From NCBI GenBank assembly GCA_002773795.1, contig PFAD01000018.1, forward strand, positions 88,682 through 152,681: 64,000 nucleotides of DNA, written 5' to 3'. The stretch comes from Chlamydiae bacterium CG10_big_fil_rev_8_21_14_0_10_42_34. Lineage in GTDB: Bacteria; Chlamydiota; Chlamydiia; Chlamydiales; SM23-39. This document shows, one piece after another, positions 26,662 to 49,641 of this stretch. Numbering within the stretch: position 1 is the first letter of the stretch; each line of letters begins with the position of its first letter. The notes under the pieces are model-generated. The model had not been told where the DNA came from. It saw only the letters and a list, made by a program, of their open reading frames with translations, and did no database searches. The position numbers and the translations under genes were made by a program.

Positions 26662-27327
26662 ATGAAAAACACCCTAAAATGGCTTATGAAAATCTATTTA
26701 GTAGTTCCGCTAACTCTATTTGGACAGATCAACTCCAATGGGGACTACCAACTTTGGCAGTGGGATTTTCTTAAATACCAAATAACTGACGAATGGACTC
26801 TTTTTACAACGCTTAATGCCCGTTGGGGCAATCAAATCTCTCAGCTATTTTACGGCTATATACAACCTCAAATTGTTTACTCTCCCCAAAAATGGGTAGC
26901 GATTGCTCCAGGATACCGACAAGCCGCAAGAAGAACCCCTCTTACTTCATCACACTGGATCCCTGAATACATCCCCCTTGCAGATATCACATTTTATGCA
27001 AAGCCTGGCAAGTGGGAAATCCATAACCGCAATAGAGTTGAGTACACGATCTCTGAAATTACCGATTTCCCTTGGCTTTTTCGGACGCGCCTTCGCTTTT
27101 ATCTTCCCGTCCACTGGACTTCTCTTAAAATCCGCCCCTTTTTCGACAACGAAATTTTTTGGAGACAAGCAGCAGGGATCAACGAAGACCGATTGTCTGC
27201 CGGATTTAAAATGATCTTTTCAGACAATTGGGGATCAGATATTTATTACATGGCCCGTTTCCATGCAGCGGAACCCCACTGGGTTTACCAAAATGTATTT
27301 AATTTTACGATTAACATGAAATATTGA
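26662..27327 (+). CDS. Outer-membrane beta-barrel protein, DUF2490-like
   Basis: 221 aa from ATG 26662, with a signal peptide ending near LTLFGQ. The mature chain alternates aromatic and polar residues in short strands (LFYGYIQPQIVYSP, FTINMKY at the C terminus ending in Tyr), as in outer-membrane barrels. The pattern of residues such as EWTLFTTLNARWG, RNRVEYT and LRFYLP is that of DUF2490. It is the first gene of a seven-gene overlapping operon. Role unknown. Confidence 0.7.
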   Translation: MKNTLKWLMKIYLVVPLTLFGQINSNGDYQLWQWDFLKYQITDEWTLFTTLNARWGNQISQLFYGYIQPQIVYSPQKWVAIAPGYRQAARRTPLTSSHWIPEYIPLADITFYAKPGKWEIHNRNRVEYTISEITDFPWLFRTRLRFYLPVHWTSLKIRPFFDNEIFWRQAAGINEDRLSAGFKMIFSDNWGSDIYYMARFHAAEPHWVYQNVFNFTINMKY

Positions 27328-28033
27328 GGTTCCTATCCCCACAGTAATCGGACTTATCCCTTGCTACAATGTAGAAAGATACTGCTGCAATGTAATTAAA
27401 CAGACCCTTAAGTGCGTTTCTAAGCTGATTTTAATCGATGATGGCTCTACAGATGGAACTGGTAAGATTTTAAAAAACTTTGCTCATCAATTTCCCGATC
27501 AAGTTCACTTGATTGTTTTCCCTAAAAACAAAGGGAAAGGAACAGCTTTACTTCACGGCATCGAATATGCGGTAAATAACCTGGAATTTCAAACCTTAGT
27601 CACCCTCGATTCAGATGGGCAACATAACCCGTCAGAAATTCAAAAGATTACAGCATGTATTGACCAAGGAGCCCAACTTGTGATTGGAACTCGCAATTTT
27701 GAAAAAATGCCCCTGCGAAGCCGATTTGCCAATACACTCATCTCATTTCTTCTAAAACGCCTCTACCCAAAGGCCCCCTTAGACAACCAATCGGGGTTCC
27801 GAGGAATCAGTCATAGTCTCGCAAAAAAAATTGCAAAAAATGTAACAGGATCGCGCTATGAAATGGAGTTCCGATGCATCCTTTTGGCCCTAAGAGATGG
27901 GGATCTAATCATTCAATGCCCCATAGAGACAATCTACATAGACCAAAATAGATCATCACACTTTTCAAAAATCAAAGATTCATACCGAATCCTTTCTGTT
28001 TTATTCCATCACTGGAGGAAAAAGCTTATATGA
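27323..28033 (+). CDS. Family 2 glycosyltransferase (dolichol-phosphate-mannose-synthase-like) lacking a standard start codon
   Basis: The GT2 N-terminal strand VIGLIPCYNVE and DDGSTDGTGKIL, then LDSDGQHNP (metal-binding DxD-type) and GSRYEMEF, are intact. The open frame reaches back only to 27320 and contains no ATG, GTG or TTG before IPCYN. The first near-cognate is ATT at 27323, overlapping the previous stop as ATTGA, which mimics the ATGA couplings throughout this operon (236 aa). Initiation at the in-frame TTG 27509 would delete the nucleotide-binding strand. Likely transfers a sugar to a lipid carrier. Confidence 0.7.
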   Translation: MEVPIPTVIGLIPCYNVERYCCNVIKQTLKCVSKLILIDDGSTDGTGKILKNFAHQFPDQVHLIVFPKNKGKGTALLHGIEYAVNNLEFQTLVTLDSDGQHNPSEIQKITACIDQGAQLVIGTRNFEKMPLRSRFANTLISFLLKRLYPKAPLDNQSGFRGISHSLAKKIAKNVTGSRYEMEFRCILLALRDGDLIIQCPIETIYIDQNRSSHFSKIKDSYRILSVLFHHWRKKLI

Positions 28034-29325
28034 AATCACTTTTTTTAGAACTAAACGAATTTAATTTTGATCTGCTTAAAGAAGCTGGCAATGAATTAGA
28101 CCTAAAAAATCTAAAACGCCTCTGTTCATTTTATAAAAGCGACACATGGACAGAAGATACTTATGAAAGCGACTATTTGGATCCTTGGGTTCAGTGGGTC
28201 TCTGTTCACACGGGACTCCCCTCCTCTCAACATAAAGTTAAACACCTCGGAGATGTAACCAATCTCCAAACTGAACAGCTCTGGGAAAAGCTATCAGAGT
28301 GTGGGGTTTCCAGCGGGATTTGGTGCGCTATGAACGCAACGCGTGGCAAAGCAGACCAGTGCCTATTTTTCCTACCTGATCTTTGGACCGCATCAGAAAG
28401 AGCTTACCCAGAAGAACTGAATGTCCTTCTAGACCCACTTCGCGCAACATCAAAAAATTACACAAGTAAGCGCAAGCTTGAATACCTAAAGGATGCGAGA
28501 AAGTTTTTGACTCTATTTAAGAAAAATGGACTTTTAGGAAGTTTTATAAAAAAAACGGTTAAGGTAATTTTAGATGCTATACGGTTTCGATTTAAGCCTT
28601 TTGTCTTCATCTCCTTTACTGACGATCTTTCTGCAAACCTTTTTCTGAAGTATAAAAAGCGCTATAACCCAGATTTTTCAATCCTATTTCTCAACTGCCT
28701 AGCCCACTTACAGCACCACCAATGGAAAAACCGGAAAATTAAGAAAAGTGATCCACTAGCTCACGGATTTCGGACAATTGATCGTATTTTGGGAATGCTT
28801 TTTGATCAATTGGGCCCCAATGATCTAATCATCGTCACAAATGCATTTTCCCAAAAAAACACAAGTGATGAAAAACCTTGGATCCTCTATCGACAAATCG
28901 ATCAGAAAAAATTCTTAGAGGCAATGGGTCTTCACCATGTATCGGTTGAATCGCATATGACGCACGATGCCCACCTCACCTTCCCAAGCGCTGAACTGGC
29001 AGAGAAGGGACAAATACTCCTTGAAGGCATCCGCATTCAAGGAGACCCACTTTTCCTCGTTGAAGCCTACCCAGATGAGCCGACAAAACTTTTCTATCGG
29101 ATTCAATTTACCGATGAATTGCGTCATGACGCTTATTTTGTCTCACAAGGCAAAAGTTTTTCTTTCTTTGATCTTTTTACAGCGATTGTCAAGAGAACAG
29201 GACGCCATACTCAAGGAGGGACACTTCTCTGCAACCAGGAAAAATTTCCTCCAAAATTAGCCAATCATGAAATATCCAGTATCATCTTGGATTTATATCC
29301 TCTTTCGGAGATACAAAAAGTATGA
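28030..29325 (+). CDS. Alkaline-phosphatase-superfamily-like protein
   Basis: 431 aa, cytosolic-looking. Fold features resemble type I phosphodiesterase/AlkP proteins: LELNEFNFDLL at the N terminus, WVQWVSVHTGLPSSQHKVKHLGD in the position of the nucleophile block, NCLAHLQHHQW, ANDLIIVTNAFSQ-like strand and a final GRHTQGGTLL metal-His-like segment. Enzymes of this superfamily move phosphoryl or phosphoethanolamine-type groups, so glycan or lipid-carrier modification is possible. Overlaps neighbours by ATGA on both sides. Assignment tentative. Confidence 0.5.
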   Translation: MKSLFLELNEFNFDLLKEAGNELDLKNLKRLCSFYKSDTWTEDTYESDYLDPWVQWVSVHTGLPSSQHKVKHLGDVTNLQTEQLWEKLSECGVSSGIWCAMNATRGKADQCLFFLPDLWTASERAYPEELNVLLDPLRATSKNYTSKRKLEYLKDARKFLTLFKKNGLLGSFIKKTVKVILDAIRFRFKPFVFISFTDDLSANLFLKYKKRYNPDFSILFLNCLAHLQHHQWKNRKIKKSDPLAHGFRTIDRILGMLFDQLGPNDLIIVTNAFSQKNTSDEKPWILYRQIDQKKFLEAMGLHHVSVESHMTHDAHLTFPSAELAEKGQILLEGIRIQGDPLFLVEAYPDEPTKLFYRIQFTDELRHDAYFVSQGKSFSFFDLFTAIVKRTGRHTQGGTLLCNQEKFPPKLANHEISSIILDLYPLSEIQKV

Positions 29326-29672
29326 CAGACGAAAGTAACAACGGACTTCCTCCTGAGATTTTTCAAGAGCTCTTAAAAAAATATAAAGAGTCTCTCCCCG
29401 AGCGAATGAATGGATTTAATCATGCCATCCAACTACTAAAAAAAAATCCCTCGAAGGAAAACCTTACTCAGGTGAGATTTTTTGTTCATAAATTTGCAGG
29501 AAATGCGGGAACTTATGGATATCAAACGGTGACTGATCTTTGTAAATCATGGGATGCTAAACTCAGTGAAATGATGAATCAATTTCCAAACTGCAAACTC
29601 GATGAGTCCCTTTTTAATGAACTCGATGCCCTATTTAAAAAAATTCAGGAGCAATTTTCTCATGGGAAATAA
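29322..29672 (+). CDS. HPt phosphotransfer protein
   Basis: 116 aa four-helix HPt module. The phosphorylated His is H56 in VHKFAGNAGTYGY (HxxxG with following Gly). It would pass phosphate between the hybrid kinase at 36091 and the receivers at 29662 or 35696. ATGA overlap with the gene before and an 11-base overlap with the receiver after it. Confidence 0.85.
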   Translation: MTDESNNGLPPEIFQELLKKYKESLPERMNGFNHAIQLLKKNPSKENLTQVRFFVHKFAGNAGTYGYQTVTDLCKSWDAKLSEMMNQFPNCKLDESLFNELDALFKKIQEQFSHGK

Positions 29673-30042
29673 AATACTAGCAGTTGATGATGATCAAGAC
29701 CTTTTACACTTAATCGCAACAACTCTTAAGTCTCAAAATTTTGAAGTTGAAACAATAGCAAATGGAAGAGAAGCCATTGCATACCTGTCTGACCAAGCAA
29801 ATGCAGAGAAAATTGGCCTGCTCATCCTAGATAGAATGCTTCCAGATATGGATGGTCTTGATATCCTTAAGTTTGTTTTAGAAAAATATCCAAATAAAAT
29901 CGCCGTTCTTATCCTATCAGCGCTTTCATCAGAAAAAGATACTTTAGAAGGGTTAAAGCGCGGCGCAGTTGACTATATGACAAAACCATTTAGCATCAAT
30001 GTGCTTTTGCAAAAAGCAAAACAACTAATTAATAAAACATGA
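29662..30042 (+). CDS. Single-domain response regulator (CheY-like)
   Basis: 126 aa receiver with no output domain. Acidic pocket D9-D10, phospho-acceptor D57 in LILDRMLPD, then ILSALSS and the conserved Lys in YMTKPF. ATG 29662 overlaps the HPt gene by 11 bases; an earlier start would lie inside HPt. Probably a phosphate relay or a protein-binding switch for the neighbouring synthase or HEAT protein. Confidence 0.9.
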   Translation: MGNKILAVDDDQDLLHLIATTLKSQNFEVETIANGREAIAYLSDQANAEKIGLLILDRMLPDMDGLDILKFVLEKYPNKIAVLILSALSSEKDTLEGLKRGAVDYMTKPFSINVLLQKAKQLINKT

Positions 30043-31058
30043 CCTATTTACCCCTACTCATTAACTTCTTAGCGGCAGAGGTGTCAATTCTTCTTTTTCT
30101 TATAATTGTAATTTTAATCCACCGTCTAATTCTTTATTTCAAGGTTAAATTCTCAAGAAAAAGAAATGCAATCCTGTCTCAGTTTTTTCTAAATCTGTTA
30201 GAAAAAAATACTCCTTTTGATATCAACAACTATCCCGGAAAAAAAAGTTGGAAAAAACTCACTTTAGAGATTTTTGAGGCCTTTGATCGACGCTTAAAAG
30301 GAGATGAGTGGGTATCCCTCAAAAACAAAGCCTGCGAGGTGCTACTGCTAGATACAGCGCGTAAATGGGCTAAAAGCATTTTCTGGCTTAAACGCAATTT
30401 TGCAGCCCGTGTATTTGCCATCTACTGTCTCCCAATTGATGAACCTTTAATTTTAAAGCTCATGGATGATCATAAGTTTTTAATTCGAAGTCCCGCTTCC
30501 CTTGCTGCAATCCACCTAGAAAGTTCTCATGGAGTTGAGAAAATCTTACATGCAATTAGCGATGAGTATGGATTTGCCCAGTTTTTTTATCGGGATGCTC
30601 TTCTTTCAGGCTCTACAAAAGTGCTTGAAATCATGACACAACTGGCCACGAATCCTATACTTCACAAAACAATTTTAGATATTTTGGGGTCAAAGTCATG
30701 GGGGAAAACAATTTTGTTTCTTAAAAATGATCTTATATCTTCAGACCCAGAGATCCATTATTTAGCTTTAAGAGCGTTAATTCGAAACCTTTTGCCCGAT
30801 AGTTACCCCTATTTTCATGCTGCTGCCACCAATGAAAATCCCAAAATTCGAGCTGTTGGAATTGAAGGTCTTTCTCTATTTCTTGGAGAAAATCCGTGGG
30901 AAGTTTTGGAAAAAGCGCTGCAAGATCCTGTTTGGGCCGTTCGCGTTGAAGCTGGGAAAACGCTCAAATCTGGCGGGGAAAAAGGGTTAGAGATCCTTAA
31001 AAGGCAAGAAAATCCCATAGCAAAAGAAGCAGCAAATTACGCATTGGTTTTCGGATGA
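30039..31058 (+). CDS. Membrane-anchored HEAT-repeat protein
   Basis: 339 aa. One N-terminal helix (VSILLFLIIVILIHRLIL, about residues 15-32), a basic stretch, then alpha-helical repeats of HEAT/PBS-lyase type: FLIRSPASLAAIHLESSHGV, DPEIHYLALRALI, NPKIRAVGIEGLS, DPVWAVRVEAGKTL. Such repeats bind protein partners; directly before a processive glycosyltransferase it is likely a regulatory or scaffolding subunit. ATGA overlaps on both sides. Confidence 0.8.
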   Translation: MTYLPLLINFLAAEVSILLFLIIVILIHRLILYFKVKFSRKRNAILSQFFLNLLEKNTPFDINNYPGKKSWKKLTLEIFEAFDRRLKGDEWVSLKNKACEVLLLDTARKWAKSIFWLKRNFAARVFAIYCLPIDEPLILKLMDDHKFLIRSPASLAAIHLESSHGVEKILHAISDEYGFAQFFYRDALLSGSTKVLEIMTQLATNPILHKTILDILGSKSWGKTILFLKNDLISSDPEIHYLALRALIRNLLPDSYPYFHAAATNENPKIRAVGIEGLSLFLGENPWEVLEKALQDPVWAVRVEAGKTLKSGGEKGLEILKRQENPIAKEAANYALVFG

Positions 31059-32482
31059 CCTTTCAAGAATTTTTACCCTGGATTGACTTTGGATTTCTCG
31101 CTTATTTCTCATTTATCAATCTGTTTTATACTTTTTTCCTCCTTCTCGGCGCTTTTAAAATTTTTAAGCGCATCAAAGAGGTAAAAGAAGAAGACACCTC
31201 TGCAATACTTAGCTCTAACTCGCTCCCTTCAATCCTGTTTGTCATGCCTATGTACAATGAAGCTGAAAATATTGTTTCCAATATTTTCAACCTCCTCTCC
31301 ATTTCATATCGTTATAAACAAATCATCGCTGTAAACGACGGATCAACAGATAATACGTATGAGCTTTTACAAAAAGCATTTGACCTCATAGAAATCCCAA
31401 AATACTACGTTGATGAGCTTCCCACGCAAAAAATCAAAGCTGTTTATCGAAGTAAATCTTATCCAGAAGTGATCGTTATTGATAAAGAACGAGGAGGTAA
31501 GTTTGATGCTATCAACTCTGCTGTAAATGCGGCTCACAATCCATTTTTTGTCGTCCTTGATGCAGACACATTTCTCGATAGCAAGGGCTTTGAAGCATTG
31601 ATTCGTCCGATTTTGACAACGCCTCAAACGATTGCTGTAGGAGCTACCGTAAGGATTCTTAATGGATGCACAATTGAATTTAACCGGATTTCAACAACTG
31701 CTTTTCCTAAAGACTTTCTGCCTGCAGTACAAAGCTTAGAGTACTTAAGAGCGTTTTTACTTAGGCAAGGATTTGATGCAATCAATGGAAATTTCATCGT
31801 TTCAGGGGCATTTTCTATTTTTCCTCGCGATCTCATCGTCCAAGTAGGAGGATTTGCCCCAACAGTTGGCGAAGATGTAGAAATTATTACGCGCCTTCAT
31901 CGGATTATGAGGAAATCTAAAACCCCATATAAAATTAAATACTTGCCAGATCCAGTCGCTTGGACAGTAGCTCCTGGCCATATAAAAGGGCTCAGCAAAC
32001 AAAGAATCAACTGGCATTTTGGCCTTTTACAAACAATTTGGTTTCATAAAACCATCTGCTTTAATCCAAAATATACTGGCCTAGGGCTATTTGGATTCCC
32101 TTTTTGGCTGTTTGGAGAGGCCTTAGAGCCTTGTATCGAAACACTAGCTTGGATCTATGTATTCATCGCTTGGGGATTGGGCGTTTTAAATGTTCCCTTT
32201 TTCTTAATGTTCCTTGCAGTCAGCTTTGGTTATACAGCACTTTACACATTTTTCAGTCTCGCTATCGAAGAATTTGGGTTTAGAAAGTACCCATCACTAA
32301 GAAACTTAATCATGCTAGTCACCTCAAATTTGCTAGAAAACATTGGTTATCGTCAGATTACTGTCTACTGGCGGCTTAGAAGCTTTTGTCGCTTCTTTGC
32401 AAAGTTTAAGGAGACGAGGAAAACCTCTCGCTATATTAACGATCTTGTTGAACAAGCGCTTTTAAAATTGCCAAAGAAATGA
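31055..32482 (+). CDS. Processive membrane glycosyltransferase (PgaC/BcsA-like)
   Basis: 475 aa. One N-terminal helix, a GT2 catalytic domain (MPMYNEAENIV, VNDGSTDNTYELL, VVLDADTFLD, GAFSIF, GEDVEIITRLHR) and QRINW, a variant of the QxxRW polymer-binding motif, then about four C-terminal membrane helices. This is the layout of cellulose, PNAG and hyaluronan synthases: it would polymerise and translocate a polysaccharide across the inner membrane. Polymer unknown. Last gene of the operon; its final 21 bases overlap the convergent porin gene. Confidence 0.85.
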   Translation: MTFQEFLPWIDFGFLAYFSFINLFYTFFLLLGAFKIFKRIKEVKEEDTSAILSSNSLPSILFVMPMYNEAENIVSNIFNLLSISYRYKQIIAVNDGSTDNTYELLQKAFDLIEIPKYYVDELPTQKIKAVYRSKSYPEVIVIDKERGGKFDAINSAVNAAHNPFFVVLDADTFLDSKGFEALIRPILTTPQTIAVGATVRILNGCTIEFNRISTTAFPKDFLPAVQSLEYLRAFLLRQGFDAINGNFIVSGAFSIFPRDLIVQVGGFAPTVGEDVEIITRLHRIMRKSKTPYKIKYLPDPVAWTVAPGHIKGLSKQRINWHFGLLQTIWFHKTICFNPKYTGLGLFGFPFWLFGEALEPCIETLAWIYVFIAWGLGVLNVPFFLMFLAVSFGYTALYTFFSLAIEEFGFRKYPSLRNLIMLVTSNLLENIGYRQITVYWRLRSFCRFFAKFKETRKTSRYINDLVEQALLKLPKK

Positions 32483-34321
32483 TCCCGTAACGTGCCAGTC
32501 GCGGTAGGGTAGTGACTCATAAAAGTAGCCTCCCTCAACTATTAATCTCATTGTGTCGCGATAGCGGGCTGTAAGAGATGATGAAAACCAGTTGGCGAAT
32601 AAATACTGTCTCGGGGCTACGAAAATAAAATTTCCGATTGGTTGAAAAAGATTATATGTTGTTTTCCAGCGATGGTAATAAGAATTTTCCCAAGTAATGC
32701 ACGATGAAAGGGGGATTTTAACTCTACATCCTATGGTGTTTTTCAGCTGCTGTTTGAACGAGTAGTAATTCTGTGATAATTGATCAAAGTGGCCGTGCTC
32801 AAATTCATAGAGTGCGGTTACATACTCGCTCAGGAAAGGGACTCCACAGCGCGCTATTGCTTTTTCCGTATTTTCCCAATTTTTTAAATTATCGCGGATA
32901 AAAATATGGCTCACCCAAGCTTCCACTTCAGGCTTTAACGTTACATCGAGGCGATACCCATAGCCGCCTGTTAGATAATCTGTTCTCAAAAGACGTGATG
33001 TAAAGTTAGAAAAATCCTTAATCACAAATGATTCTGTGTGGGCATCGACAGCAAAGAGTTGCCGCTCGCTATTATAAAGCAATCCTGTACCTGGCTCAAA
33101 ACGATCTGTTTTCTTAAATGGATAACCGACATCTTGCCAGCCCCAAGCCTCAAAAGCTCTTGCAGATACATTCCAGCGCCAATTTTTAGCAAAAAAGAAA
33201 CTGGAGGTTACCTCCCCTCCCGTCAAATACATCGAGTAGTTAACCCCAATCGGTGGATAGATATCATTTTCTCTTTGGTGATAATAGATCTGCTTTAAAT
33301 CAAGTCTCCAACGATTAGTCACCGGCACCAAAATATGGACAGCATTTAGAAAGTAATAATCTTTGACAACAGGGGCTAAAAGGCTTGGGTCATCTTCTTT
33401 TGCATCTGAGTAAAGCGTCTCGATGTAAAGAGCGCACCTTGTATGAGATTTCACATCAAAAAGCTCCGCCCAATAGTTATCGTCCGCAGGGTCATCGTCG
33501 ACAAGCCACTGAAATTCTGTTTGAGCTGCAAAATAGTCCAGCTCTGCAACATGAAGACGCGCTTTTTCCCTCCGAGCCTCTTTATGATTAGGGTTCTCTG
33601 CTAAAATTTCTTGAAAATGTCTTTTTGCGTCACTGTTTTTCCCTTGCCTCTTATAAACTAAAGCAAGTCCCATTTTAGCATCTTGGTTTTCCGGAAAACG
33701 CGAAAAGATCTCTTCAGCATCCCCAAAGTGCTCTTTCCAAAGGTAAATATATCCAAGCTGAACCTCTGCATCGCTATATTGCGGAGCAAGCTCCAAGCAC
33801 TGCTTTAAAACTTTTTCAGCCTCATCCCATCTCTTTGTTCGGGCAAGGGCCCTGCCGAGATAAAATAGAGTGTCGGCATTTGAAGGCTCGCAATCATTGA
33901 TGATGGTATAGATCTGCACCACCTCTTCTTGTTTTTTCTCATCTTGCGCCCACTGAGCCCCTATTTCTCGAAGCCCCTCTACCGTGTTCGCATCGCAAGG
34001 CCTTTGCTTTTCAGCCTGTAAAAAATAAGAGTAAGCAAAACCAAAATTGCCCTCCCACAAAAATAAAAAACCAAGCTGAATCTTACTTTGCGCTAGCAGA
34101 GGATCTAAGTGGATCGCTTTTTCTAAGCTCTTCTTTGCCCCTTCGCGATCTCCCTCTTCAATTTGGACAAGCGCCCATTCATACCATTGGTCTGCTGTTT
34201 GGGGATCTGGATACTCTGCAAAGACTTGTTCGCTCTCAGGTGGGCGAACAATGGGAGAGGAGATCGCAAAAGCGCAGCATGCAAGAGATAAAAATAGAGC
34301 CAGGCTACTCTTGTGTTTCAT
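32462..34321 (-). CDS. TPR plus outer-membrane beta-barrel protein (PgaA/BcsC/YaiO-like)
   Basis: 619 aa. Signal peptide (residues 1-19), TPR repeats at about 40-280 (YEWALVQIEEGDREGAKKSL, FYLGRALARTKRWDEAEKVL, and later copies), then a C-terminal beta-barrel of about 320 residues rich in Tyr/Trp and ending in Phe (TGSFLWQF). This is the architecture of exopolysaccharide exporters PgaA and BcsC and of YaiO. It is opposite the PgaC-like synthase and is the natural export partner. Overlaps the CHASE-PAS gene by 17 bases. Confidence 0.8.
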   Translation of the reverse strand: MKHKSSLALFLSLACCAFAISSPIVRPPESEQVFAEYPDPQTADQWYEWALVQIEEGDREGAKKSLEKAIHLDPLLAQSKIQLGFLFLWEGNFGFAYSYFLQAEKQRPCDANTVEGLREIGAQWAQDEKKQEEVVQIYTIINDCEPSNADTLFYLGRALARTKRWDEAEKVLKQCLELAPQYSDAEVQLGYIYLWKEHFGDAEEIFSRFPENQDAKMGLALVYKRQGKNSDAKRHFQEILAENPNHKEARREKARLHVAELDYFAAQTEFQWLVDDDPADDNYWAELFDVKSHTRCALYIETLYSDAKEDDPSLLAPVVKDYYFLNAVHILVPVTNRWRLDLKQIYYHQRENDIYPPIGVNYSMYLTGGEVTSSFFFAKNWRWNVSARAFEAWGWQDVGYPFKKTDRFEPGTGLLYNSERQLFAVDAHTESFVIKDFSNFTSRLLRTDYLTGGYGYRLDVTLKPEVEAWVSHIFIRDNLKNWENTEKAIARCGVPFLSEYVTALYEFEHGHFDQLSQNYYSFKQQLKNTIGCRVKIPLSSCITWENSYYHRWKTTYNLFQPIGNFIFVAPRQYLFANWFSSSLTARYRDTMRLIVEGGYFYESLPYRDWHVTGSFLWQF

Positions 34322-35699
34322 GCGAAATTCCCATAAACCCTATCAACTCTCCCTTATTGTTTTTCAGCTCTTGGATATTTAAAGAAACAGCTACTCTCGA
34401 CTGATCTTTGCGAATGTAGTGCCACTTTTTCTCATCAGGAATTCCTTTTTGCGCAAGGAAAGCAAACACTTCAAAACCAGGGGCTATTTGTCTGCCAAAA
34501 AGAGTCGATAGCTCCTTTGCCCTTTCATCCATCTCTTTTGGATCGTGGAAAATAACTGGCGTTGTTTTGCCAATGACTTCCTCTGCTTTATATCCAAGTA
34601 ATTTTTCTGCGGCTTTATTGAAGATTACAATCTTTCCCTTCTCATCTGAACAGATCACACAATCATTCATATGGTTTAAAAGCGCCTGACGAATAGAGCA
34701 TGCCTGAGCTCCTTGCTGCTCTATTTTTTCTGCATCCTCGGTTAAAATCACTTTTTCCTTATAGGCAAAATAGATCAGGATCATAAGCAGCAAAGTTGTT
34801 AAAAGGCCACTTAGCAATAAAACTGTTGGGTAAGCATATCTGATTCCCACTTTGTACCCAGGACCGGAACTGAAGACAAGAGTTAAATCCACGCCGCCTA
34901 AAGTCATTTCGTAAGTATCGCTAAAAATAGGGTTTTCATCAGGGCTTGGCAAGCGAGCAACAATGATCTGGGTCGGGTCTGCTATTTTACCGCGATAGAT
35001 CTGATAGTTGACATCTTTTAGACCCAGCTCGCGTGCCAGTAAATCAGTTGAAGATTTAAAGTTGATCAAAGCGACAATCCAGCCTATATTTCCTGCAGAT
35101 TTATTGATCGGAATTAAAAGGCTCAAAATCCCTTTATTTAATCGCACTTTACTCAGCTCAATTGGATCCGTTAGGATCATTTCTTCAGAAGATCTCGCTT
35201 TTTTAGTCGCCTCAGAAATAGCTGAGTCTTGGTTTAGGTCCAATCCTATGTAGCTGCTATACTTTTGGGGAAATGTGTAGACAACAGGGAGATAAACTGA
35301 AGCCTCTTTCACAGGCCAGATCTTGAAATCAGGCGTCCCTCGAGAACGGATCTTTTCAACCTCTGCGCCCATTTGCTCCTTTGAGATCTTCTGGACAAAT
35401 CCTAAAAGTTCAATAGAGGGAAACCTATCCCAAAGCGCTAAAGAAGAGACGTATGATTGCCACTCGTTTTGATCTACGATTTCAGAAGAGAGAAAAAATC
35501 CCCGCAGCGATTTCAGGATTACCTGGTAGGTAAAAAAGCGATTTTTCAAAGAAAAATAAAAGCTCTGCGACTGGTGGTAGAAGTCAATTCGCTTCGCCTG
35601 AATTTGCTCATCTATCGCCTGTCTAAAAACAAGATAGGATGTCAAAGACCCCACAATAGCGATAAGAGAGATAAAAAAATATGATTTCCAGTTCTTCAC
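34305..35699 (-). CDS. CHASE-PAS sensor protein without a kinase domain
   Basis: 464 aa. An N-terminal helix (FFISLIAIVGSLTSYLVF), an extracytoplasmic CHASE domain at about 40-260 (LRGFFLSSE, FPSIELLGFVQKI, YLPVVYTFPQ), a second helix near 290-315, then one PAS domain (DCVICSDEKGKIVIFNKAA, LLGYKAEEVIGKTTPVIFH) and the PAC tail, where it stops. No HisKA, GGDEF or EAL output follows. The GTG start overlaps the receiver stop (GTGA). It probably senses a small ligand and signals through a partner, perhaps the hybrid kinase encoded upstream. Confidence 0.8.
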   Translation of the reverse strand: MKNWKSYFFISLIAIVGSLTSYLVFRQAIDEQIQAKRIDFYHQSQSFYFSLKNRFFTYQVILKSLRGFFLSSEIVDQNEWQSYVSSLALWDRFPSIELLGFVQKISKEQMGAEVEKIRSRGTPDFKIWPVKEASVYLPVVYTFPQKYSSYIGLDLNQDSAISEATKKARSSEEMILTDPIELSKVRLNKGILSLLIPINKSAGNIGWIVALINFKSSTDLLARELGLKDVNYQIYRGKIADPTQIIVARLPSPDENPIFSDTYEMTLGGVDLTLVFSSGPGYKVGIRYAYPTVLLLSGLLTTLLLMILIYFAYKEKVILTEDAEKIEQQGAQACSIRQALLNHMNDCVICSDEKGKIVIFNKAAEKLLGYKAEEVIGKTTPVIFHDPKEMDERAKELSTLFGRQIAPGFEVFAFLAQKGIPDEKKWHYIRKDQSRVAVSLNIQELKNNKGELIGFMGISHETQE

Positions 35700-36088
35700 T
35701 TTACCAAGTACTTTGCCATTTTCTGTCTTAATTCATCTAGCAGAATTGGCTTTGAGATAAAATCATCAACTCCCACCTTGACACAATTTTTCTTATCTTC
35801 GTCTAAGATACTTGCCGTCAAGGCGATAATCGGCACCCTCTTTCCATCTTTTTCTGCAGCCCGAATCTCTTTTGTAGCAGAGATCCCATCTTTATTCGGC
35901 ATGCGGATATCCATAAAGATTAGGTCGAAAGGTTCTTTTTGATACATCTCAATCACTTGATTTCCATCTTCAGCAAATTGGACTGAGCAGTTCATTAAGC
36001 CAAGGATATCTCTCATTAGCTCGCGCCCTAAAGGGTCATCTTCAGCAACCAAAATCTTTTTTCCTGTAAAACAGGTTTTCCAATCCAT
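35696..36088 (-). CDS. Single-domain response regulator
   Basis: 130 aa receiver: acidic pair in LVAEDDPLGRELM, phospho-acceptor Asp in LIFMDIRMPNKDG (residue about 61), LTAS and the Lys in FISKPI. Of the type usually fused to the C terminus of hybrid kinases; here it is separate, 2 bases after the kinase gene, with AAGGA 5 bases before its ATG. It may replace the degenerate receiver of the kinase. Confidence 0.92.
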   Translation of the reverse strand: MDWKTCFTGKKILVAEDDPLGRELMRDILGLMNCSVQFAEDGNQVIEMYQKEPFDLIFMDIRMPNKDGISATKEIRAAEKDGKRVPIIALTASILDEDKKNCVKVGVDDFISKPILLDELRQKMAKYLVK

Positions 36089-36090
36089 AT

Positions 36091-38598
36091 TTATCCTTTC
36101 TCAAGGCTTTTGAAAAGCTCGCTAGGAACTATTGGCCTGACGAGCGTCCCTAAAATTTCTTCAGACAACAGGCCTTCTTCTTTATCTGTTATCAAAAAGC
36201 TCTTTTTTTGCCGAGCTTGATAAATTTGTCTCGCCACATCCAGTGAGCTCACAACAGCTACTTCATACTCTGCGTTTTGATCGCTTTTCACTTGAGCTCC
36301 CCAATCTGTTAGATACTTTTGTAAAATTTCGCGTTCTTTCTCTTTTTCATCGACAAGCAAGATCTCTTTTTTACCTAAAGAGTAGTTGCTGGCAGCCTCT
36401 AAAGGCCCCATCTTAAAAGGAATCTCAAACCAAAAATCAGATCCTTTTCCCGTCTCGCTTTCAACGCCAATTTCACCGCCCATTAACTCGACTAATTTCT
36501 TGCAAATCGAAAGACCAAGCCCGACGCCTCCATATTTTCGCACCTGAGAACTTTCAAGCTGAGAAAACTTTTGAAATAGTTTTTGTTGATCTTCTTGAGA
36601 GATCCCAATCCCTGTGTCAATGACATCAAAACGGATCAACAAAACGTGGTCGGTTTGTCCTTTGACTTGAAAACGCAAGTGCAAAGAACCCTGATCTGTA
36701 AATTTTAAAGAGTTTGTTCCTAAATTTGTAATGATTTGATAAAGTCTTGTGGGATCTGTCATCACTTGGGCAACAGGCTGAGAAGGACACTCGACATAAA
36801 GATCCATTTTTTTCTCTTTTGCCTTCAAAAATAAATTATCTGCCGACTTTTTCAAAATAAAGAAAAGATCCGTTGGAGCATACTCTAAATTGACTCCTCC
36901 TGCCTCAATTTTTGAAAAATCTAAAATGTCGCTAATTAAATTCAACAATAAATTGCCTGCATAGATGATCCGATCAATATATTTCTTCTGTATTTCATTT
37001 ACTTGCATCTCTTGCAAAAGCTGCACCGTTCCCAAAATCGCATTAAGAGGCGTTCTAATTTCATGGGTCATGGTCGCTAAAAAGACCCCCTTGGCCACAC
37101 TTGCCGATTCCGCTTTTGCACTTGCCTCTTTCAGCTGAAGATTCACATTTTCCAGATTCTTTTTCTCATCTCTTAAATTTTGCCCTAAAAAGACCATCAC
37201 TCCTGCAATTAAAGTCGCAAGAAGCCCGGTTAAAAGCAAAGTAACGTGAACTTCTTTATATTCGGGAATCTTGATGTTTTCTGTGACAAAAAGCTGCAAT
37301 TTCCAAGGAGCGATCGTTTCATGAATTACATATTCAAAAGGATTACCCCTTAAAATTGTAGAAGAGCCCCCTGAATAGAGCAGCTCATCGTCAAAGAAGA
37401 TAGAAATAAAATAGTCTCCCAGCTGTAGCTCATTGATTTCAAAGTCTAGCAATGAAGCCATTTCGATCCTGCCTGCCAAAATACCGCTAAACTCATAATT
37501 GACTATAAGGGGGAAATAGGTGAGAAGGAAGCCTTTATGTTCTGAAGGAATGGTTACAACAGCCCCCGCTTTCAAAGCTGCTATCTGATCAGGGCCGAGC
37601 AAGTTTCCATTACGACTTAATTGCCCGAGGCCTCTTCTCATCTCTTTTAGCTTCTTAAAATCCTTATCATAAATTGCAATAGCATCTAACCCAACCAGCT
37701 CATTTACATAATTTGTAGAATCTATTTCCCATAGTTTTTCAGAGTAACCTCCAAGAGCATTCCACCGGTCTGCCATTCTTTGGAGCGCTCGCACCTCTTC
37801 TACAATCTTCTGTTCCATCACTGCCTTGAGATACTTCGCCTTTTCCTCTGCAATTGCCTCTATCGCGTTATGCTCTTGTGTGCGAAATACCTGCCAAGTT
37901 GTAAGTGTTGCGAAAAGAAAACCCACCATTACGCTGATTGGCAGAACAAAGCGCCCGAACGGCAGCGAGAGATTTAACTTAGCTCCATAAATGAAACAAG
38001 CCGTCCCCAAAATAAAGCAGCAAACAGAGGTGTGAACCGCCATCCGAGCAAAGTCGGTCCAACCTAGCTCCGCTTCTAAGCCGGTGACATGACCCATAAT
38101 GCTCACGATCGCTACACTCACCACCAAAGTGCTAAGGATTAAAGCAATGGGGATAAAAAAGACCCCCTTTTTATAATTGAGAAAAAAAATGGATATTGCA
38201 GAAGCTGTTAGGGCCCCTGCTGTATTAAAGGCCATCCTGCCAGGGAATTTCATTGAATTGGGAAGATCGTATGTTTGAAACAACTCATCGACCCATAAAT
38301 TCTGGCCGCTAATGTATTGGGCCAAGACGATAAAGGCAAGAGCTCCTCCCAAAAAGGAGAAAATCTTCGACAGTCGTGCAAGGTCCAGACCTAAAAAAGC
38401 AAGAGCAAGCCCTATTGAAAAGAGCGAAAACGCCGTATTGAACTGCATGGCGACAAAATTTGGGCGAACCTGAATAAGCGCTACGCTATGGATTTTCCAG
38501 CCAACCATCACAGAAAATCCGACGAGCGCGACCAGTAGACCTGCTATCAGCAGCATCCATCGATCCCAAGTCAGCTCAAAAAAAATTTTTCTGTTCAA
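36091..38598 (-). CDS. Hybrid sensor histidine kinase with degenerate receiver
   Basis: 835 aa from TTG 38598 (AAGG 7 bases upstream). About seven N-terminal helices form a MASE-like membrane sensor (1-240), then a periplasmic CHASE-like part ending in a helix near 450-470, a coiled coil, HisKA with phospho-His H512 in MTHEIRTPLNAILG, and HATPase_c with NLGTNSLKFTD, DTGIGI and GGVGLGLSI. The C-terminal 110 residues keep the receiver fold (ILLVDEKEKEREILQKYL) but the acceptor strand reads VAVVSS with no Asp. Probable top of the phosphorelay. Confidence 0.9.
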   Translation of the reverse strand: MNRKIFFELTWDRWMLLIAGLLVALVGFSVMVGWKIHSVALIQVRPNFVAMQFNTAFSLFSIGLALAFLGLDLARLSKIFSFLGGALAFIVLAQYISGQNLWVDELFQTYDLPNSMKFPGRMAFNTAGALTASAISIFFLNYKKGVFFIPIALILSTLVVSVAIVSIMGHVTGLEAELGWTDFARMAVHTSVCCFILGTACFIYGAKLNLSLPFGRFVLPISVMVGFLFATLTTWQVFRTQEHNAIEAIAEEKAKYLKAVMEQKIVEEVRALQRMADRWNALGGYSEKLWEIDSTNYVNELVGLDAIAIYDKDFKKLKEMRRGLGQLSRNGNLLGPDQIAALKAGAVVTIPSEHKGFLLTYFPLIVNYEFSGILAGRIEMASLLDFEINELQLGDYFISIFFDDELLYSGGSSTILRGNPFEYVIHETIAPWKLQLFVTENIKIPEYKEVHVTLLLTGLLATLIAGVMVFLGQNLRDEKKNLENVNLQLKEASAKAESASVAKGVFLATMTHEIRTPLNAILGTVQLLQEMQVNEIQKKYIDRIIYAGNLLLNLISDILDFSKIEAGGVNLEYAPTDLFFILKKSADNLFLKAKEKKMDLYVECPSQPVAQVMTDPTRLYQIITNLGTNSLKFTDQGSLHLRFQVKGQTDHVLLIRFDVIDTGIGISQEDQQKLFQKFSQLESSQVRKYGGVGLGLSICKKLVELMGGEIGVESETGKGSDFWFEIPFKMGPLEAASNYSLGKKEILLVDEKEKEREILQKYLTDWGAQVKSDQNAEYEVAVVSSLDVARQIYQARQKKSFLITDKEEGLLSEEILGTLVRPIVPSELFKSLEKG

Positions 38599-38625: not shown

Positions 38626-40977
38626 CTAATGACCCCACTTCCAATTGCGGATCTCCGGCAAATCTTCCCCATATTTTTGCACATACTCTTTGTGTTCACT
38701 TCGTTTGTCACGAAGCCATCGTGTTACGTGAGCAGCTTTTGCTCCCAATTTTTCAACCCGCTCGATGACATCTGAGGCTAAATGGAATCGATCGATATCA
38801 TTGAGCACGCACATATCAAATGGCGTTGTTGTCGTCCCCTCTTCTTTGTAACCGCGAACATGGATCCTTTGATTTGCTCTTCGGTAAACAATTCGATGAA
38901 TGAGCCATGGATATCCATGAAAAGCAAAAATAATAGGTTTATCTTTTGTGAACATTAAATCGTAATCTTTATCACTAATTCCATGAGGGTGTTCAACTTG
39001 GGGCTGCAGCGTCATGAGATCGACCACATTGACCACTCTGATTTTTAAATCGGGGAAGTGATTTTTTAGGATTTCTACAGCTGCGAGCGTCTCTATAGTT
39101 GGGACATCACCTGCACAAGCCATTACGACATCTGGATCATTTCCCTCATCGGTGCTCGCCCAATCCCAAATCCCTAACCCTGCGGTGCAGTGCCTTACGG
39201 CTGACTCCATGTCGAGCCATTGCGGACTCGGCTGCTTGCCCGCCACGATCACGTTGATGTAATTGCGACTTTTTAAGCAGTGATTCGTGACCGACAAAAG
39301 AGTGTTCGCATCGGGGGGGAGATAAACGCGGACAACGTGCGATTTTTTATTCACTACATGATCGATAAAACCAGGATCTTGATGGCTAAAGCCGTTGTGA
39401 TCTTGGCGCCAAACGTGTGATGTGAGTAGGTAATTGAGCGAGGCGATGGGCCTTCTCCATGGAATATCATTGCATACTTTAAGCCATTTAGCATGCTGAT
39501 TGAACATCGAATCGATAATATGGATAAACGCCTCATAGCAAGAAAACAGGCCGTGTCTTCCTGTGAGAAGATACCCTTCGAGCCAACCTTGACATAGGTG
39601 CTCACTCAACACTTCCATGACTCTGCCATCTGGCGAGACATGGTCGTCCGTTTTCAATACAACAGCAGTCGATACACGCTCCGTGATATCAAAAAGGGCG
39701 GTCAATCGGTTTGAGGCCGTCTCATCGGGGCCAAAGATGCGGAAATTGTGCGCATCCCAATTTTGTTTCATAATATCGCGCAGAAAATCTCCCATGATGC
39801 GGGTCGATTCACCAAAATCTGCGCCTGGATGTTTTACGGCAAACGCATACTTTCTAAAGTCGGGCATATTGAGATCATGAAGAAGCAGTCCTCCATTAGC
39901 ATGAGGATTAGCCCCCATTCTCTGAATGCCTTTAGGAGCGAGGTCGGCAAGGTCAGCAATGAGTTTTCCCTTTTCATCAAAGAGTTTTTCAGGCTGATAG
40001 CTTCTCATCCACTTTTCTAAGATCTTGATGTGCTCCGGCTTTTCTCTTAACTCAGAGAGAGGCACCTGATGGGCTCGAAAGGTCCCCTCGATCGGGATGC
40101 CGTCGACTACTTTAGGCCCAGTCCACCCTTTGGGTGTTTTGAAGACGATCATGGGCCATGAGGGGCGCTTTTTAAAACCATCACTTCTGGCTTGTTTTTG
40201 AATTTGGTGGATCTCTTCTATGACAGTATCCAATGTTTGAGCCAGCTCTTGATGCACTTTTTCAGGATCATCCCCTTCTACAAAATAGGGCTTATATCCA
40301 TAGCCTACAAAAAGAGATTTGAGCTCTTCTTGAGAAATGCGAGCCAGCACTGTAGGCTCTGCAATTTTATAGCCATTGAGGTGCAAGATCGGAAGCACCG
40401 CGCCATCGCGAACTGGATTGAGAAACTTATTTGAGTGCCAACTTGTAGCTAAAGCACCCGTCTCCGCCTCTCCATCGCCAACGACGCATGCAGCAATGAG
40501 ATCTGGATTGTCGAACACCGCTCCATAGGCGTGGGCAAGGCTGTAGCCGAGCTCGCCTCCTTCATTGATAGATCCGGGCGTTTCTGGTGCCACGTGGCTT
40601 GGAATGCCTCCTGGAAATGAAAATTGGGTAAACAGCTTTTTCAGCCCCGCTTCATCTTGCGGAATATTTGGGTAAAATTCACTATAAGTTCCTTCCAAAT
40701 AGGTATTGGCCACAAGACCCGGCCCACCATGGCCGGGGCCTGTGATATAGATCATGTTCAAATTTTGCTCTTTGATGATCCGATTCAAGTGAACGTAGAT
40801 GAAATTGAGTCCTGGCGTCGTTCCCCAGTGGCCTAAAAGGCGCGGCTTGATGTGATCGATAGTGAGGGGCTTTTTTAAAAGGGGATTATCATAGAGATAG
40901 ATCTGGCCTACCGACAAGTAGTTGGCAGCGCGCCAATAGGCGTCCATTTTTTCTAACAGCTCTCGGGACAAAGTCAC
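38626..40977 (-). CDS. xfp: Xylulose-5-phosphate/fructose-6-phosphate phosphoketolase
   Basis: ThDP enzyme splitting xylulose-5-P or fructose-6-P with phosphate to acetyl phosphate plus a C3 or C4 sugar phosphate. 783 aa, full length, with [15 protein letters not shown], ThDP motif [16 protein letters not shown], and the [20 protein letters not shown] block. The start is GTG 40977 with AGGT 6 bases upstream. Acetate kinase diverges from it across 53 bases, so acetyl phosphate can yield ATP. It is 27 bases upstream of the histidine kinase on the same strand. Confidence 0.96.
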
Positions 40978-41030
40978 AGTTTACCTTTTTTCTCGCATAG
41001 TAGATTTTTTTTTGTTATTTGGGAACTTAT

Positions 41031-42116
41031 ATGCAGATCTTAGTCCTGAATCGAGGCTCTAGTAGCGTAAAATTAAGCCTCTATGACTTTAAAGCAGCGC
41101 CAAAAGAGCCGATTGCTCCCCATTGGGAGGATAAAATCGAGTGGAAAAATGTTTGGGATCAAGGCTCGATTGAAAAAGAGCTGAGCGCAAAATTAAAAGA
41201 TAAGCGGTTCGATTGCATCGGCCACAGAGTCGTTCATGGAGGCAGGAAGTATCAGAAAAGCACGCTCATCAATAAAGAAGTCAAAGAAGAGATCAGAAAA
41301 CTTGCAGACTTAGCCCCGCTTCACAACTTAGCAGATTTAGAGGGGATTGAAATTTTTGAAAAGCTCTTCCCGAAATGTCCTCAAGTTGCCGTCTTTGACA
41401 CTGCGTTTCACCACACAATGGCGCCTGAAGCTATCGTCTATCCGGGACCTTACGAGTGGTTTGAAAAAGGGATTCAAAAGTATGGATTTCATGGGACAAG
41501 TTTTCAATACTGCACGAAAAGAGCGCAGCATCTTTTAAAAAAATTACCAGAAAAGATGGTCATTTGCCATTTGGGATCAGGCGCCTCTTTATGCGCGGTA
41601 AAAAATGGGAAAAGCATCGACACGACCATGGGATTTACTCCGCTAGATGGGCTCATGATGGATACCCGATCGGGCAACGTGGATCCCGGGATTTTACTCC
41701 ATTTATTAAAGACGCAGTCAGTAGAGGACCTATCGACAGATCTCTATGAAAAATCGGGCCTTTTGGGCCTGTCTGGCATTTCAAGCGATATGAGAGATGT
41801 TTTAGAGGCGTCTGTAACTAACCCAAGAGCAAAACTGAGTCTCGATGTCTATTTGCACCGGCTTTGCTCGATGATCGGCTCGATGATTGGCTCTTTAAAT
41901 GGGATTGATACTCTGGTTTTCACAGCGGGCATTGGAGAAAACTCCACCTACATTCAAGATGAGGTGTGCAAACGCCTTTGCTTTTTGGGCATTCATTTAA
42001 AAAAACAAAGGGACAAAGGGATCATCTCTTCGCCCGATTCTAAAGTGACTGTTTTACTCATCCACACGCAAGAGGCCTTTGAAATTGCGCTGCAAACCTT
42101 TGAACAAATGGGATAA
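41031..42116 (+). CDS. ackA: Acetate kinase
   Basis: Converts acetyl phosphate and ADP to acetate and ATP. 361 aa from ATG 41031 (GGGAA 6 bases upstream). Signatures: LVLNRGSSSVKLSL, GHRVVHGG, VFDTAFHHTM, YGFHGTSFQY, CHLGSGASL, TMGFTPLDGLMMDTRSG and FTAGIGENS. The neighbours give the route: phosphoketolase makes acetyl phosphate, this enzyme harvests it. Followed 3 bases later by the H+-ATPase. Confidence 0.96.
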   Translation: MQILVLNRGSSSVKLSLYDFKAAPKEPIAPHWEDKIEWKNVWDQGSIEKELSAKLKDKRFDCIGHRVVHGGRKYQKSTLINKEVKEEIRKLADLAPLHNLADLEGIEIFEKLFPKCPQVAVFDTAFHHTMAPEAIVYPGPYEWFEKGIQKYGFHGTSFQYCTKRAQHLLKKLPEKMVICHLGSGASLCAVKNGKSIDTTMGFTPLDGLMMDTRSGNVDPGILLHLLKTQSVEDLSTDLYEKSGLLGLSGISSDMRDVLEASVTNPRAKLSLDVYLHRLCSMIGSMIGSLNGIDTLVFTAGIGENSTYIQDEVCKRLCFLGIHLKKQRDKGIISSPDSKVTVLLIHTQEAFEIALQTFEQMG

Positions 42117-47668: not shown

Positions 47669-47899
47669 AATTATAAATCCGCATTAGTTTTATTAATTAT
47701 ATCAAAATGTTAAGTATAATTAAACATTAATTTGCAATTCAGATGCGACTAAAAATGAGTGACATATATACATAAACGAACTCAAAAATTGGGAGTTTGA
47801 CAAGGGGGTTTTGCACGAAAGCCACACAAAACTATCAATTTAAACCCTAGTGTCAAATAATAATTTTTCTTATATAAGTATGTATTGGGAGAAACCCAT

Positions 47900-49600: not shown

Positions 49601-49641
49601 CCCGTAGCCGGCCGTTGTCAATTGTTTAGGCCGCGGGTTAA
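49597..49641. terminator. Inverted repeat between convergent tpsB and tpsA
   Basis: TTAACCCG...CGGCC (49597-49613, with a 4-base bulge) pairs with GGCCGCGGGTTAA (49629-49641). The stop codons of both genes lie in the arms. There is no strong T-tract, but position suggests a bidirectional transcription end. The TTAACCCG arm end resembles the ends of the 25497-25648 element. Confidence 0.55.

What the first reader, a model, noticed from the sequence alone, without database searches (positions are those of the whole stretch)
26662..38598. Polysaccharide synthesis and export system with its own phosphorelay
Two convergent operons bring together an outer-membrane barrel, a lipid-carrier-type GT2, an AlkP-like enzyme, HPt, two stand-alone receivers, a membrane HEAT protein, a PgaC/BcsA-like synthase, a TPR-barrel porin, a CHASE-PAS sensor and a hybrid kinase. 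Plus-strand genes from 27323 to 32482 overlap without gaps. Parts resemble PNAG or cellulose machines, but the composition is not one I recognise, and exopolysaccharide is unexpected in an intracellular chlamydia. This is my leading candidate for an undescribed system.
Basis: partly seen in the sequence, partly recalled or inferred. Interest (0 to 1): 0.85.

Follow-up and report, generated by a model that had tools for sequence, protein, structure and literature searches.

The report
Phosphorelay-gated polysaccharide synthesis and export machine
This stretch of a chlamydial genome carries a compact gene set that likely makes a sugar polymer and is predicted to push it out of the cell under the likely control of a bacterial phosphate relay, and its core gene pair sits side by side in many other bacteria and in a salt-loving archaeon.

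Summary
In detail: two convergent gene rows (26662-38598) encode every part listed, with 4-11 bp overlaps on the plus strand. The core is a receiver (RR1), a membrane-anchored HEAT protein and a processive GT2 synthase. HEAT occurs in 31 of 232 Chlamydiota genomes and the synthase in 30; 29 have both. Outside the phylum, HEAT lies within 3.5 kb upstream of the synthase in 59 of 72 loci, and eight more encode both as one long protein. A Mesorhizobium plasmid has an ATP-binding protein, two receivers, YaiO barrel, HEAT, GT2 and HPt; a haloarchaeal plasmid has receiver, HEAT and GT2 without a barrel. The window's TPR protein is predicted to form a 16-strand barrel whose best structural matches are BcsC, PgaA and PelB. 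The genome has no PilZ match and only a degenerate GGDEF, so c-di-GMP control is unlikely. A His-Asp-His-Asp relay is complete on sequence. Inferred: RR1 docks on HEAT to switch the synthase. In 17 of 63 receivers upstream of HEAT or synthase the phospho-Asp is Glu. It fails PNAG and cellulose tests. GT2a, AlkP and DUF2490 look like a linked accessory cassette. Ten full-text searches listed no description. New variant of a known kind.

The parts
26662..27327 (+). DUF2490 protein, possible outer-membrane barrel; accessory
   Evidence: PF10677 80.8 bits; same order DUF2490-GT2a-AlkP in L199
27323..28033 (+). GT2a, small polyprenyl-phosphate-type glycosyltransferase; start uncertain (ATT); accessory
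   Evidence: PF00535 86.4 bits; best NCBIfam PpgS 72.5 against a cut-off of 370; next to AlkP in 8 of 8 loci where that side is on the contig
28030..29325 (+). AlkP-superfamily-like protein, no signal peptide seen by eye; accessory
   Evidence: PF01663 21.9 bits, below cut-off; 9 of 232 Chlamydiota genomes at E <= 1e-20, 6 of them with HEAT; AlkP-HPt fusion P0055
29322..29672 (+). HPt phosphotransfer protein, motif VHKFAGNAG
   Evidence: PF01627 30.5 bits; the only Hpt match in the genome at E <= 0.001
29662..30042 (+). RR1, receiver without output domain, phospho-Asp in LILDRMLPD
   Evidence: PF00072 85.6 bits; receiver within three genes upstream of HEAT in 23 of 34 fetched chlamydial loci and within 6 kb upstream of the synthase in 58 of 72 others
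30039..31058 (+). HEAT protein with N-terminal membrane helix; predicted synthase partner
   Evidence: HEAT_2, HEAT structures by profile; 31 of 232 genomes; fused to GT2 elsewhere
31055..32482 (+). GT2b, processive-type membrane synthase; D95, D169/D171, D274, Q316 R317 W320
   Evidence: these residues invariant in 17 of 17 aligned; PgaC_IcaA 115.6 bits against a cut-off of 422.3; a relative's fold is like hyaluronan synthase and BcsA
32462..34321 (-). TPR + predicted 16-strand barrel, export porin
34305..35699 (-). CHASE-PAS sensor without kinase or other output domain
   Evidence: PF03924 87.2 bits, PAS_9 49.9
35696..36088 (-). RR2, receiver without output domain
   Evidence: PF00072 101.5 bits; phospho-Asp in DLIFMDIRMP
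36091..38598 (-). Membrane histidine kinase, HisKA + HATPase, with receiver-like tail that lacks the phospho-Asp region

Best explanation
The cluster encodes a receiver (RR1), a HEAT protein and a GT2 synthase beside a TPR-barrel protein, a histidine kinase, a second receiver and an HPt, and together these would likely make a sugar polymer, are predicted to export it through the barrel, and would likely switch the synthase by a His-Asp-His-Asp relay. Shown on sequence or by conservation: the genes and motifs, the tight coupling of HEAT and GT2 (mostly with a receiver) across phyla, natural HEAT-GT2 fusions, and the phospho-acceptor residues of kinase (THEIRTP), RR2, HPt and RR1. Predicted: GT2b polymerises in the hyaluronan-synthase/BcsA manner and the HEAT solenoid, held by one N-terminal membrane helix, sits on its cytosolic face. 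Inferred: CHASE-PAS and the kinase sense an envelope signal, phosphate goes from kinase to RR2 to HPt to RR1, and phosphorylated RR1 (which has no other output) docks on HEAT and activates or opens the synthase, taking the place that c-di-GMP holds in cellulose and PNAG machines. The sugar is unknown; an N-acetylhexosamine or its uronic acid is my best guess from relatives. GT2a, AlkP and DUF2490 are a linked cassette that may modify or prime the product.
For: HEAT in 31/232 (E <= 1e-3) and GT2b in 30/232 (E <= 1e-30) Chlamydiota genomes, 29 shared, Fisher p 1.9e-33 without correction for relatedness. HEAT within 3.5 kb upstream of GT2b in 59 of 72 non-chlamydial loci, 0 of 72 with HEAT elsewhere in the stretch held; receiver upstream in 58 of 72. 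Natural fusions. Third-party annotation: ATP-binding protein, two response regulators, YaiO, HEAT, GT2 and Hpt on a Mesorhizobium plasmid, Hpt beside HEAT and a GT2 annotated in two pieces in Devosia, sensor kinases, receiver, HEAT and GT2 in Haloarcula without barrel. Folds. Own genome: no PilZ match, one GGDEF match with a broken motif, a single HPt, 2 of 5 receivers here. Site of phosphorylation in 63 receivers: Asp 46, Glu 17.
Against: No product has been seen for any member. No REC-HEAT fusion turned up in the 72 non-chlamydial loci. 11 of 34 fetched chlamydial loci have no receiver within three genes upstream of HEAT; for five of them (L034, L035, L037, L041, L042) at least 4.8 kb of upstream sequence is held, so this is not a contig end, while two (L051, L061) hold under 350 bases. 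Three loci of the window's own family (L036, L038, L042) have a GGDEF gene nearby instead (CZB-GGDEF by Pfam in L036), so c-di-GMP may act in some members. In three loci HEAT and synthase lie apart (L040, L041, L043). In 17 of 63 loci the receiver has no Asp to phosphorylate. The fold of HEAT + GT2 was made from a distant fusion, not from the window's own proteins, and no complex was modelled. A Bacteroides plasmid copy shows no receiver or barrel in view, and Legionella, Deinococcus and Planococcus copies show no receiver.
Confidence: 0.58

Rival explanations
1. Polymer synthesis and export are real, but the phosphorelay controls something else and merely shares the neighbourhood; HEAT is a structural partner of the synthase.
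For: No REC-HEAT fusion; receiver absent in 11 of 34 fetched chlamydial loci, five of them with ample upstream sequence, and without Asp in 17 of 63; kinase and relay genes vary from locus to locus.
Against: RR1 and RR2 have no output domain; a receiver lies upstream in 58 of 72 loci outside the phylum; Hpt comes with the module in Mesorhizobium and Devosia too.
Confidence: 0.24
2. Two neighbouring but separate systems: receiver-HEAT-GT2b makes an exported polymer, while DUF2490-GT2a-AlkP makes a lipid-linked or other surface glycan of its own. This is compatible with the best explanation for the core.
For: GT2a-AlkP occurs without a HEAT match in G131, G191 and G192 (the first two genomes are 63 and 70% complete, the third 97%). 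The word-based protein search listed 495 AlkP homologues against 9 for HEAT, though that search misses fast-changing families and in whole genomes HEAT (31) is commoner than AlkP (9).
Against: 6 of 9 AlkP genomes have HEAT (Fisher p 2e-4, uncorrected); AlkP is fused to HPt in P0055; a TPR-barrel gene lies beside AlkP in L036, L038, L198, L199.
Confidence: 0.35
3. A divergent PNAG or cellulose operon.
For: GT2b's best NCBIfam match is PgaC/IcaA; the TPR protein touches PgaA and BcsC models; the barrel fold matches both.
Against: Scores far below cut-offs (115.6 of 422.3; 41.3 of 366.65; CelA 37.5 of 699.1); no PgaB, PgaD, BcsB or PilZ family among the 10 cluster proteins scanned, no PilZ match in the genome; HEAT and receiver are parts of neither as far as I know.
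Confidence: 0.08
4. c-di-GMP controls the machine as in known synthase systems, and the relay only feeds a diguanylate cyclase.
For: Relatives' upstream receivers often carry GGDEF, with a GGEEF motif in L074, L082, L099, L106, L109, L133; GGDEF neighbours in three chlamydial loci.
Against: In this genome the only GGDEF match reads APDDG where GG(D/E)EF is expected and PilZ is not found; of the 23 receiver proteins beside chlamydial HEAT genes 0 have the motif.
Confidence: 0.08

Closest known systems
PNAG system PgaABCD
   Same: GT2 synthase closest to PgaC among named models; TPR + 16-strand barrel like PgaA by predicted fold
   Different: No PgaB or PgaD family found in the cluster proteins scanned; HEAT protein and receivers instead; scores far under cut-offs
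Cellulose synthase complex BcsA/BcsC
   Same: Processive membrane GT2 fold in a relative and TPR-barrel exit porin
   Different: No PilZ, no BcsB; phosphorelay parts in place of c-di-GMP
Hyaluronan/heparosan-type synthases
   Different: Operon with HEAT partner, receiver and export barrel
Unnamed receiver-HEAT-GT2 operons (Mesorhizobium, Devosia, Erythrobacter, Caulobacteraceae, Bacillota, Bacteroidota, Spirochaetota, Haloarcula and others)
   Same: Same core genes; Mesorhizobium has ATP-binding protein, two receivers, YaiO barrel, HEAT, GT2 and Hpt
   Different: The chlamydial window adds CHASE-PAS, DUF2490, GT2a and AlkP, and splits the genes over two convergent rows

Membership tests
Synthase-dependent polysaccharide export (general kind) | Membrane GT2 with D, DxD, ED and QxxRW motifs | tested here: met
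   D95, D169, D171, D274, Q316, R317, W320 invariant in 17 of 17
Synthase-dependent polysaccharide export (general kind) | TPR domain plus outer-membrane barrel pore | tested here: met
Synthase-dependent polysaccharide export (general kind) | c-di-GMP-binding regulatory domain or co-polymerase | tested here: not met
   No PilZ match in the genome; only a degenerate GGDEF; other c-di-GMP-binding folds were not tested
Synthase-dependent polysaccharide export (general kind) | Periplasmic modification enzymes | tested here: inconclusive
   AlkP-like protein shows no signal peptide by eye; no deacetylase or lyase family among the 10 proteins scanned
Synthase-dependent polysaccharide export (general kind) | A secreted polymer | not testable with these tools
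   Needs culture and chemistry
PNAG (Pga) | PgaC and PgaA equivalog scores, PgaB deacetylase | tested here: not met
   115.6 of 422.3; 41.3 of 366.65 bits; no deacetylase family in 10 of the 11 cluster proteins
Cellulose (Bcs) | CelA/BcsA equivalog score, PilZ, BcsB | tested here: not met
   37.5 of 699.1 bits; no PilZ match; no BcsB family in the cluster proteins scanned
Multistep phosphorelay | His kinase, receiver, HPt, receiver with their phospho-acceptor residues | tested here: met
   Residues present in HK, RR2, HPt, RR1
Multistep phosphorelay | Phosphotransfer among these four | not testable with these tools
   Needs purified proteins
Receiver-HEAT-GT2 module (as defined here) | Receiver, HEAT and GT2b as successive genes | tested here: met
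   29662-32482; relatives

The most novel reading that the evidence does not exclude
A broad, unnamed class of polysaccharide synthase, shared by bacteria and haloarchaea, in which a response-regulator receiver is a working subunit: it docks on a HEAT arm of the synthase and, by phosphorylation or by a built-in Glu in place of the phospho-Asp, gates polymerisation. The relay acts on the enzyme itself, not on transcription, and takes the part that c-di-GMP plays elsewhere; chlamydiae use it to coat their surface.
Probability: 0.36. Interest if true: 0.85.

Novelty: new variant of a known kind. Interest (0 to 1): 0.72.

Why it matters
If right, it adds a class to the five synthase-dependent polysaccharides counted in a 2020 survey (PMC7112194, passages read), with a different control principle, and it is present in culturable bacteria where it can be deleted today. 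It also gives several chlamydial lineages a predicted secreted polysaccharide, which bears on how their infectious forms survive outside or attach to host cells. The repeated Asp-to-Glu change in receivers near the synthase gives a direct test of whether a receiver can be a permanently active enzyme subunit.

Tried and rejected
PNAG and cellulose membership: rejected on scores and missing partners. c-di-GMP control in this genome: not favoured. AlkP in solved structures by sequence: no match at E <= 1, so its chemistry stays open. HEAT and AlkP in PHROGs: none at E <= 0.001. Phage records: 3 matches to GT2b at E <= 1e-20, one covering 83% of it on an unannotated faecal record; not followed up. 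Foreign origin by G+C: cluster 0.406 against 0.425 for the window, 1-kb windows varying by 0.024; no clear outlier. Promoter and terminator scans were at or below shuffle level and decide nothing. A REC-HEAT fusion was looked for in the 72 non-chlamydial loci and not found.

Papers: ten searches listed no paper that by title or abstract describes HEAT + GT2 + receiver operons or an exopolysaccharide in Chlamydiota. Searches listed every hit (2, 1, 8, 3) and one search had none; some searches showed only the top part of 23, 27,480, 691, 29 and 1,738 hits. Passages were read in PMC7112194, PMC6367360, PMC12419801, PMC3826837 and PMC3174227, whose HEAT mentions, where present, were unrelated; other papers were seen as listings only. 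Subscription journals and preprints are mostly not in that library, so a description may exist there.

Limits of the counts: the 72 non-chlamydial loci are from the best 80 of 205 relatives, so they are biased towards close kin. Of the 13 without a HEAT match upstream, L072 lies at a contig start; eight (L112, L118, L120, L124, L126, L127, L142, L144) are 944-1021-residue proteins with GT2 at the end (Pfam HEAT shown for L120 only; the others were aligned with it); L103 and L139 may be the same; L087 and L110 are unexplained. The phospho-site count began with 65 pieces: within two genes of HEAT in Chlamydiota, within five genes of the synthase elsewhere, so not all are direct neighbours (L083 is 3 kb off). 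Two pieces (L127, L129) were the end of another protein, not a receiver, and are left out of the 63; the receivers that do lie next to HEAT-GT2 in those two loci also read Glu. A first motif search for GGDEF in chlamydial receiver proteins used too narrow a pattern and was repeated. High-G+C loci gave spurious frames in the greedy gene call, so counts outside the phylum use six-frame profile hits.
Full report
What is there. Two convergent gene rows occupy 26662-38598. The plus row is DUF2490, GT2a, AlkP-like, HPt, RR1, HEAT, GT2b, with ends overlapping by 4-11 bp; the minus row is histidine kinase, RR2, CHASE-PAS, TPR-barrel; the rows overlap by 21 bp where they meet. Pfam confirms the domains (RR2), with the AlkP call weak. 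RR1 and RR2 are receivers and nothing else, the CHASE-PAS protein ends after PAS, and the kinase's tail resembles a receiver but lacks the phospho-Asp region.

Conserved core inside Chlamydiota. HEAT is found in 31 of 232 genomes (30 of 145 genera; E <= 1e-3) and GT2b in 30 of 232 (E <= 1e-30). They share 29 genomes; the three exceptions are G063 and G142 (HEAT only) and G080 (synthase only). In G142 and G080 the match starts within 120 bases of a contig end, and in G063 the gene beside HEAT runs off the contig. Fisher's test gives 1.9e-33, not corrected for kinship. Of 35 HEAT matches, 28 (27 of the 34 fetched loci, and the window) have GT2b within five genes, in a few on the other strand; of the other seven, L037, L055, L059 and L063 lie at or near contig ends and L040, L041 and L043 have no synthase nearby. 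In 19 fetched loci HEAT and GT2b are neighbours on one strand with gaps of -17 to +9 bp. A receiver lies upstream of HEAT on the same strand within three genes in 23 of 34 fetched loci; of the 11 without, five hold at least 4.8 kb upstream, so the absence is real there. TPR proteins with some likeness to the window's are present in 25 of 34, some of these being weak matches. In many loci the receiver is the last domain of a 500-800 residue protein with HPt, further receivers and a GGDEF-like domain; none of the 23 has a GG(D/E)EF motif.

Conserved core outside. A scan of one genome per species found 205 relatives of the synthase, of which the best 80 were kept, 72 of them non-chlamydial. HEAT lies within 3.5 kb upstream on the same strand in 59 of 72 and nowhere else in those stretches; a receiver lies upstream within 6 kb in 58 of 72; a TPR-barrel match within 6 kb in 30 of 72. 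In Clostridia and Spirochaetota, HEAT and GT2 are one protein of 944-1021 residues (HEAT_2 in L120 at 6.5e-9). As a check against other people's annotation, I searched plasmids with the Caulobacter zeae synthase (L075), a relative of the window's: 14 records matched and I opened 9. HEAT is annotated directly upstream in 8 of 9, and in the ninth (Emticicia) an unnamed protein stands there; a response regulator stands upstream in 5 of 9, a YaiO or TPR protein beside the pair in 6 of 9, Hpt in 2 of 9. Mesorhizobium ciceri has, in one stretch, an ATP-binding protein (probably the kinase), two response regulators, YaiO barrel, HEAT, GT2 and Hpt. Haloarcula, an archaeon without an outer membrane, has receiver, HEAT and GT2 with sensor kinases and no barrel. 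Against a tidy picture: the Bacteroides copy shows neither receiver nor barrel in view, and Deinococcus, Legionella and Planococcus copies show no receiver.

Origin. In a quick tree of 100 synthases the chlamydial ones lie on one side of a branch with support 98 once L119, itself a chlamydia, is counted with them. Sampling was seeded with chlamydial sequences and the search was short, so this is weak evidence for one old origin in the phylum. Within the window's own family at least three sub-branches occur, and two genomes of one genus carry different ones, so there has been loss or exchange.

Control. The genome has five receiver matches, two of them here, one HPt, here, six HATPase matches, probably not all sensor kinases, no PilZ match and one GGDEF match that reads APDDG where the motif is expected. 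So a relay kinase, RR2, HPt, RR1 is complete on sequence and c-di-GMP control is unlikely in this organism. Because RR1 has no output domain and a receiver gene travels with HEAT and GT2 across phyla, I infer that RR1 acts by binding HEAT. In 63 receivers taken from upstream of HEAT or the synthase, the phospho site is Asp in 46 and Glu in 17; Glu occurs in chlamydial, bacteroidotal, alphaproteobacterial, clostridial and spirochaetal loci. A fixed acid could mimic phosphate, which fits a receiver that is needed as a part even where it is not switched; it could equally mean that the receiver has lost its function there.

Product and accessories. Relatives carry nucleotide-sugar dehydrogenases (6 loci) and SDR epimerases (8 loci) (families shown for three and one of these), a GH18 gene beside HEAT in 5 loci (Pfam for one), and a GGDEF gene in 3 (CZB-GGDEF by Pfam for one). 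The window's genome has one nucleotide-sugar dehydrogenase match, on another contig. The sugar stays a guess. AlkP is in 9 of 232 Chlamydiota genomes at E <= 1e-20, 6 with HEAT (p 2e-4). GT2a stands beside it in 8 of 8 loci where that side is on the contig. One database protein is AlkP fused to HPt. L199 repeats DUF2490-GT2a-AlkP convergent to a TPR-barrel-like and a PAS protein, as in the window. So this cassette is linked, but it also occurs where no HEAT was found.

Known or new. A 2020 survey counts five synthase-dependent polysaccharides and defines the kind by synthase, c-di-GMP subunit, modification enzymes and TPR plus pore (PMC7112194, passages). The window has the first and last and replaces the second. 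Ten searches of 5.39 million open papers, five of them showing only their top hits, listed no description of the HEAT-GT2-receiver operon. I file it as a new variant of a known kind.

Noticed in passing
L031, L043, L047, L055, L057, L059, L064 and ten non-chlamydial loci: The receiver upstream of HEAT or synthase carries Glu at the phospho-Asp position in 17 of 63 cases, in several lineages, with the catalytic Lys kept.
   Followed up: partly
L196:3761-5056: A receiver in one open frame with an NAD-dependent sugar epimerase/dehydratase, beside HPt-AlkP-GT2a-RR2-HK; could be a real fusion or a lost stop between two genes.
   Followed up: no
L112:6522-8504, L124:1599-3644: Proteins upstream of HEAT-GT2 fusions join an ODP metallo-beta-lactamase-like domain to GGDEF and a receiver, perhaps an oxygen-linked sensor.
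   Followed up: no
L031:11297-12622 and L057, L059, L060, L064: GH18-family (chitinase-like) gene near HEAT and its receiver in five chlamydial loci (Pfam for L031 only).
   Followed up: partly
window 34305-35699: CHASE-PAS membrane protein without any output domain, overlapping the RR2 gene; sensor apparently split from its kinase.
   Followed up: no
window 47885-49600 and 49638-62135: A POTRA/barrel-like gene beside a 4165-residue repetitive protein, looking like a two-partner secretion pair (by eye).
   Followed up: no
window 20466-22772: Three genes that look like rmlB, rmlD, rmlC for dTDP-rhamnose (by eye), 4 kb from the cluster.
   Followed up: no
window 38626-42116: Phosphoketolase-like and acetate-kinase-like genes next to the kinase row (by eye); the first is only 27 bp from the kinase gene.
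   Followed up: no
L175:920-3859 (own genome, contig 14): Replicative helicase DnaB with what looks like an intein (by eye).
   Followed up: no
L202, Haloarcula plasmid: Receiver-HEAT-GT2 module in a haloarchaeon, with two sensor kinases and no barrel.
   Followed up: partly
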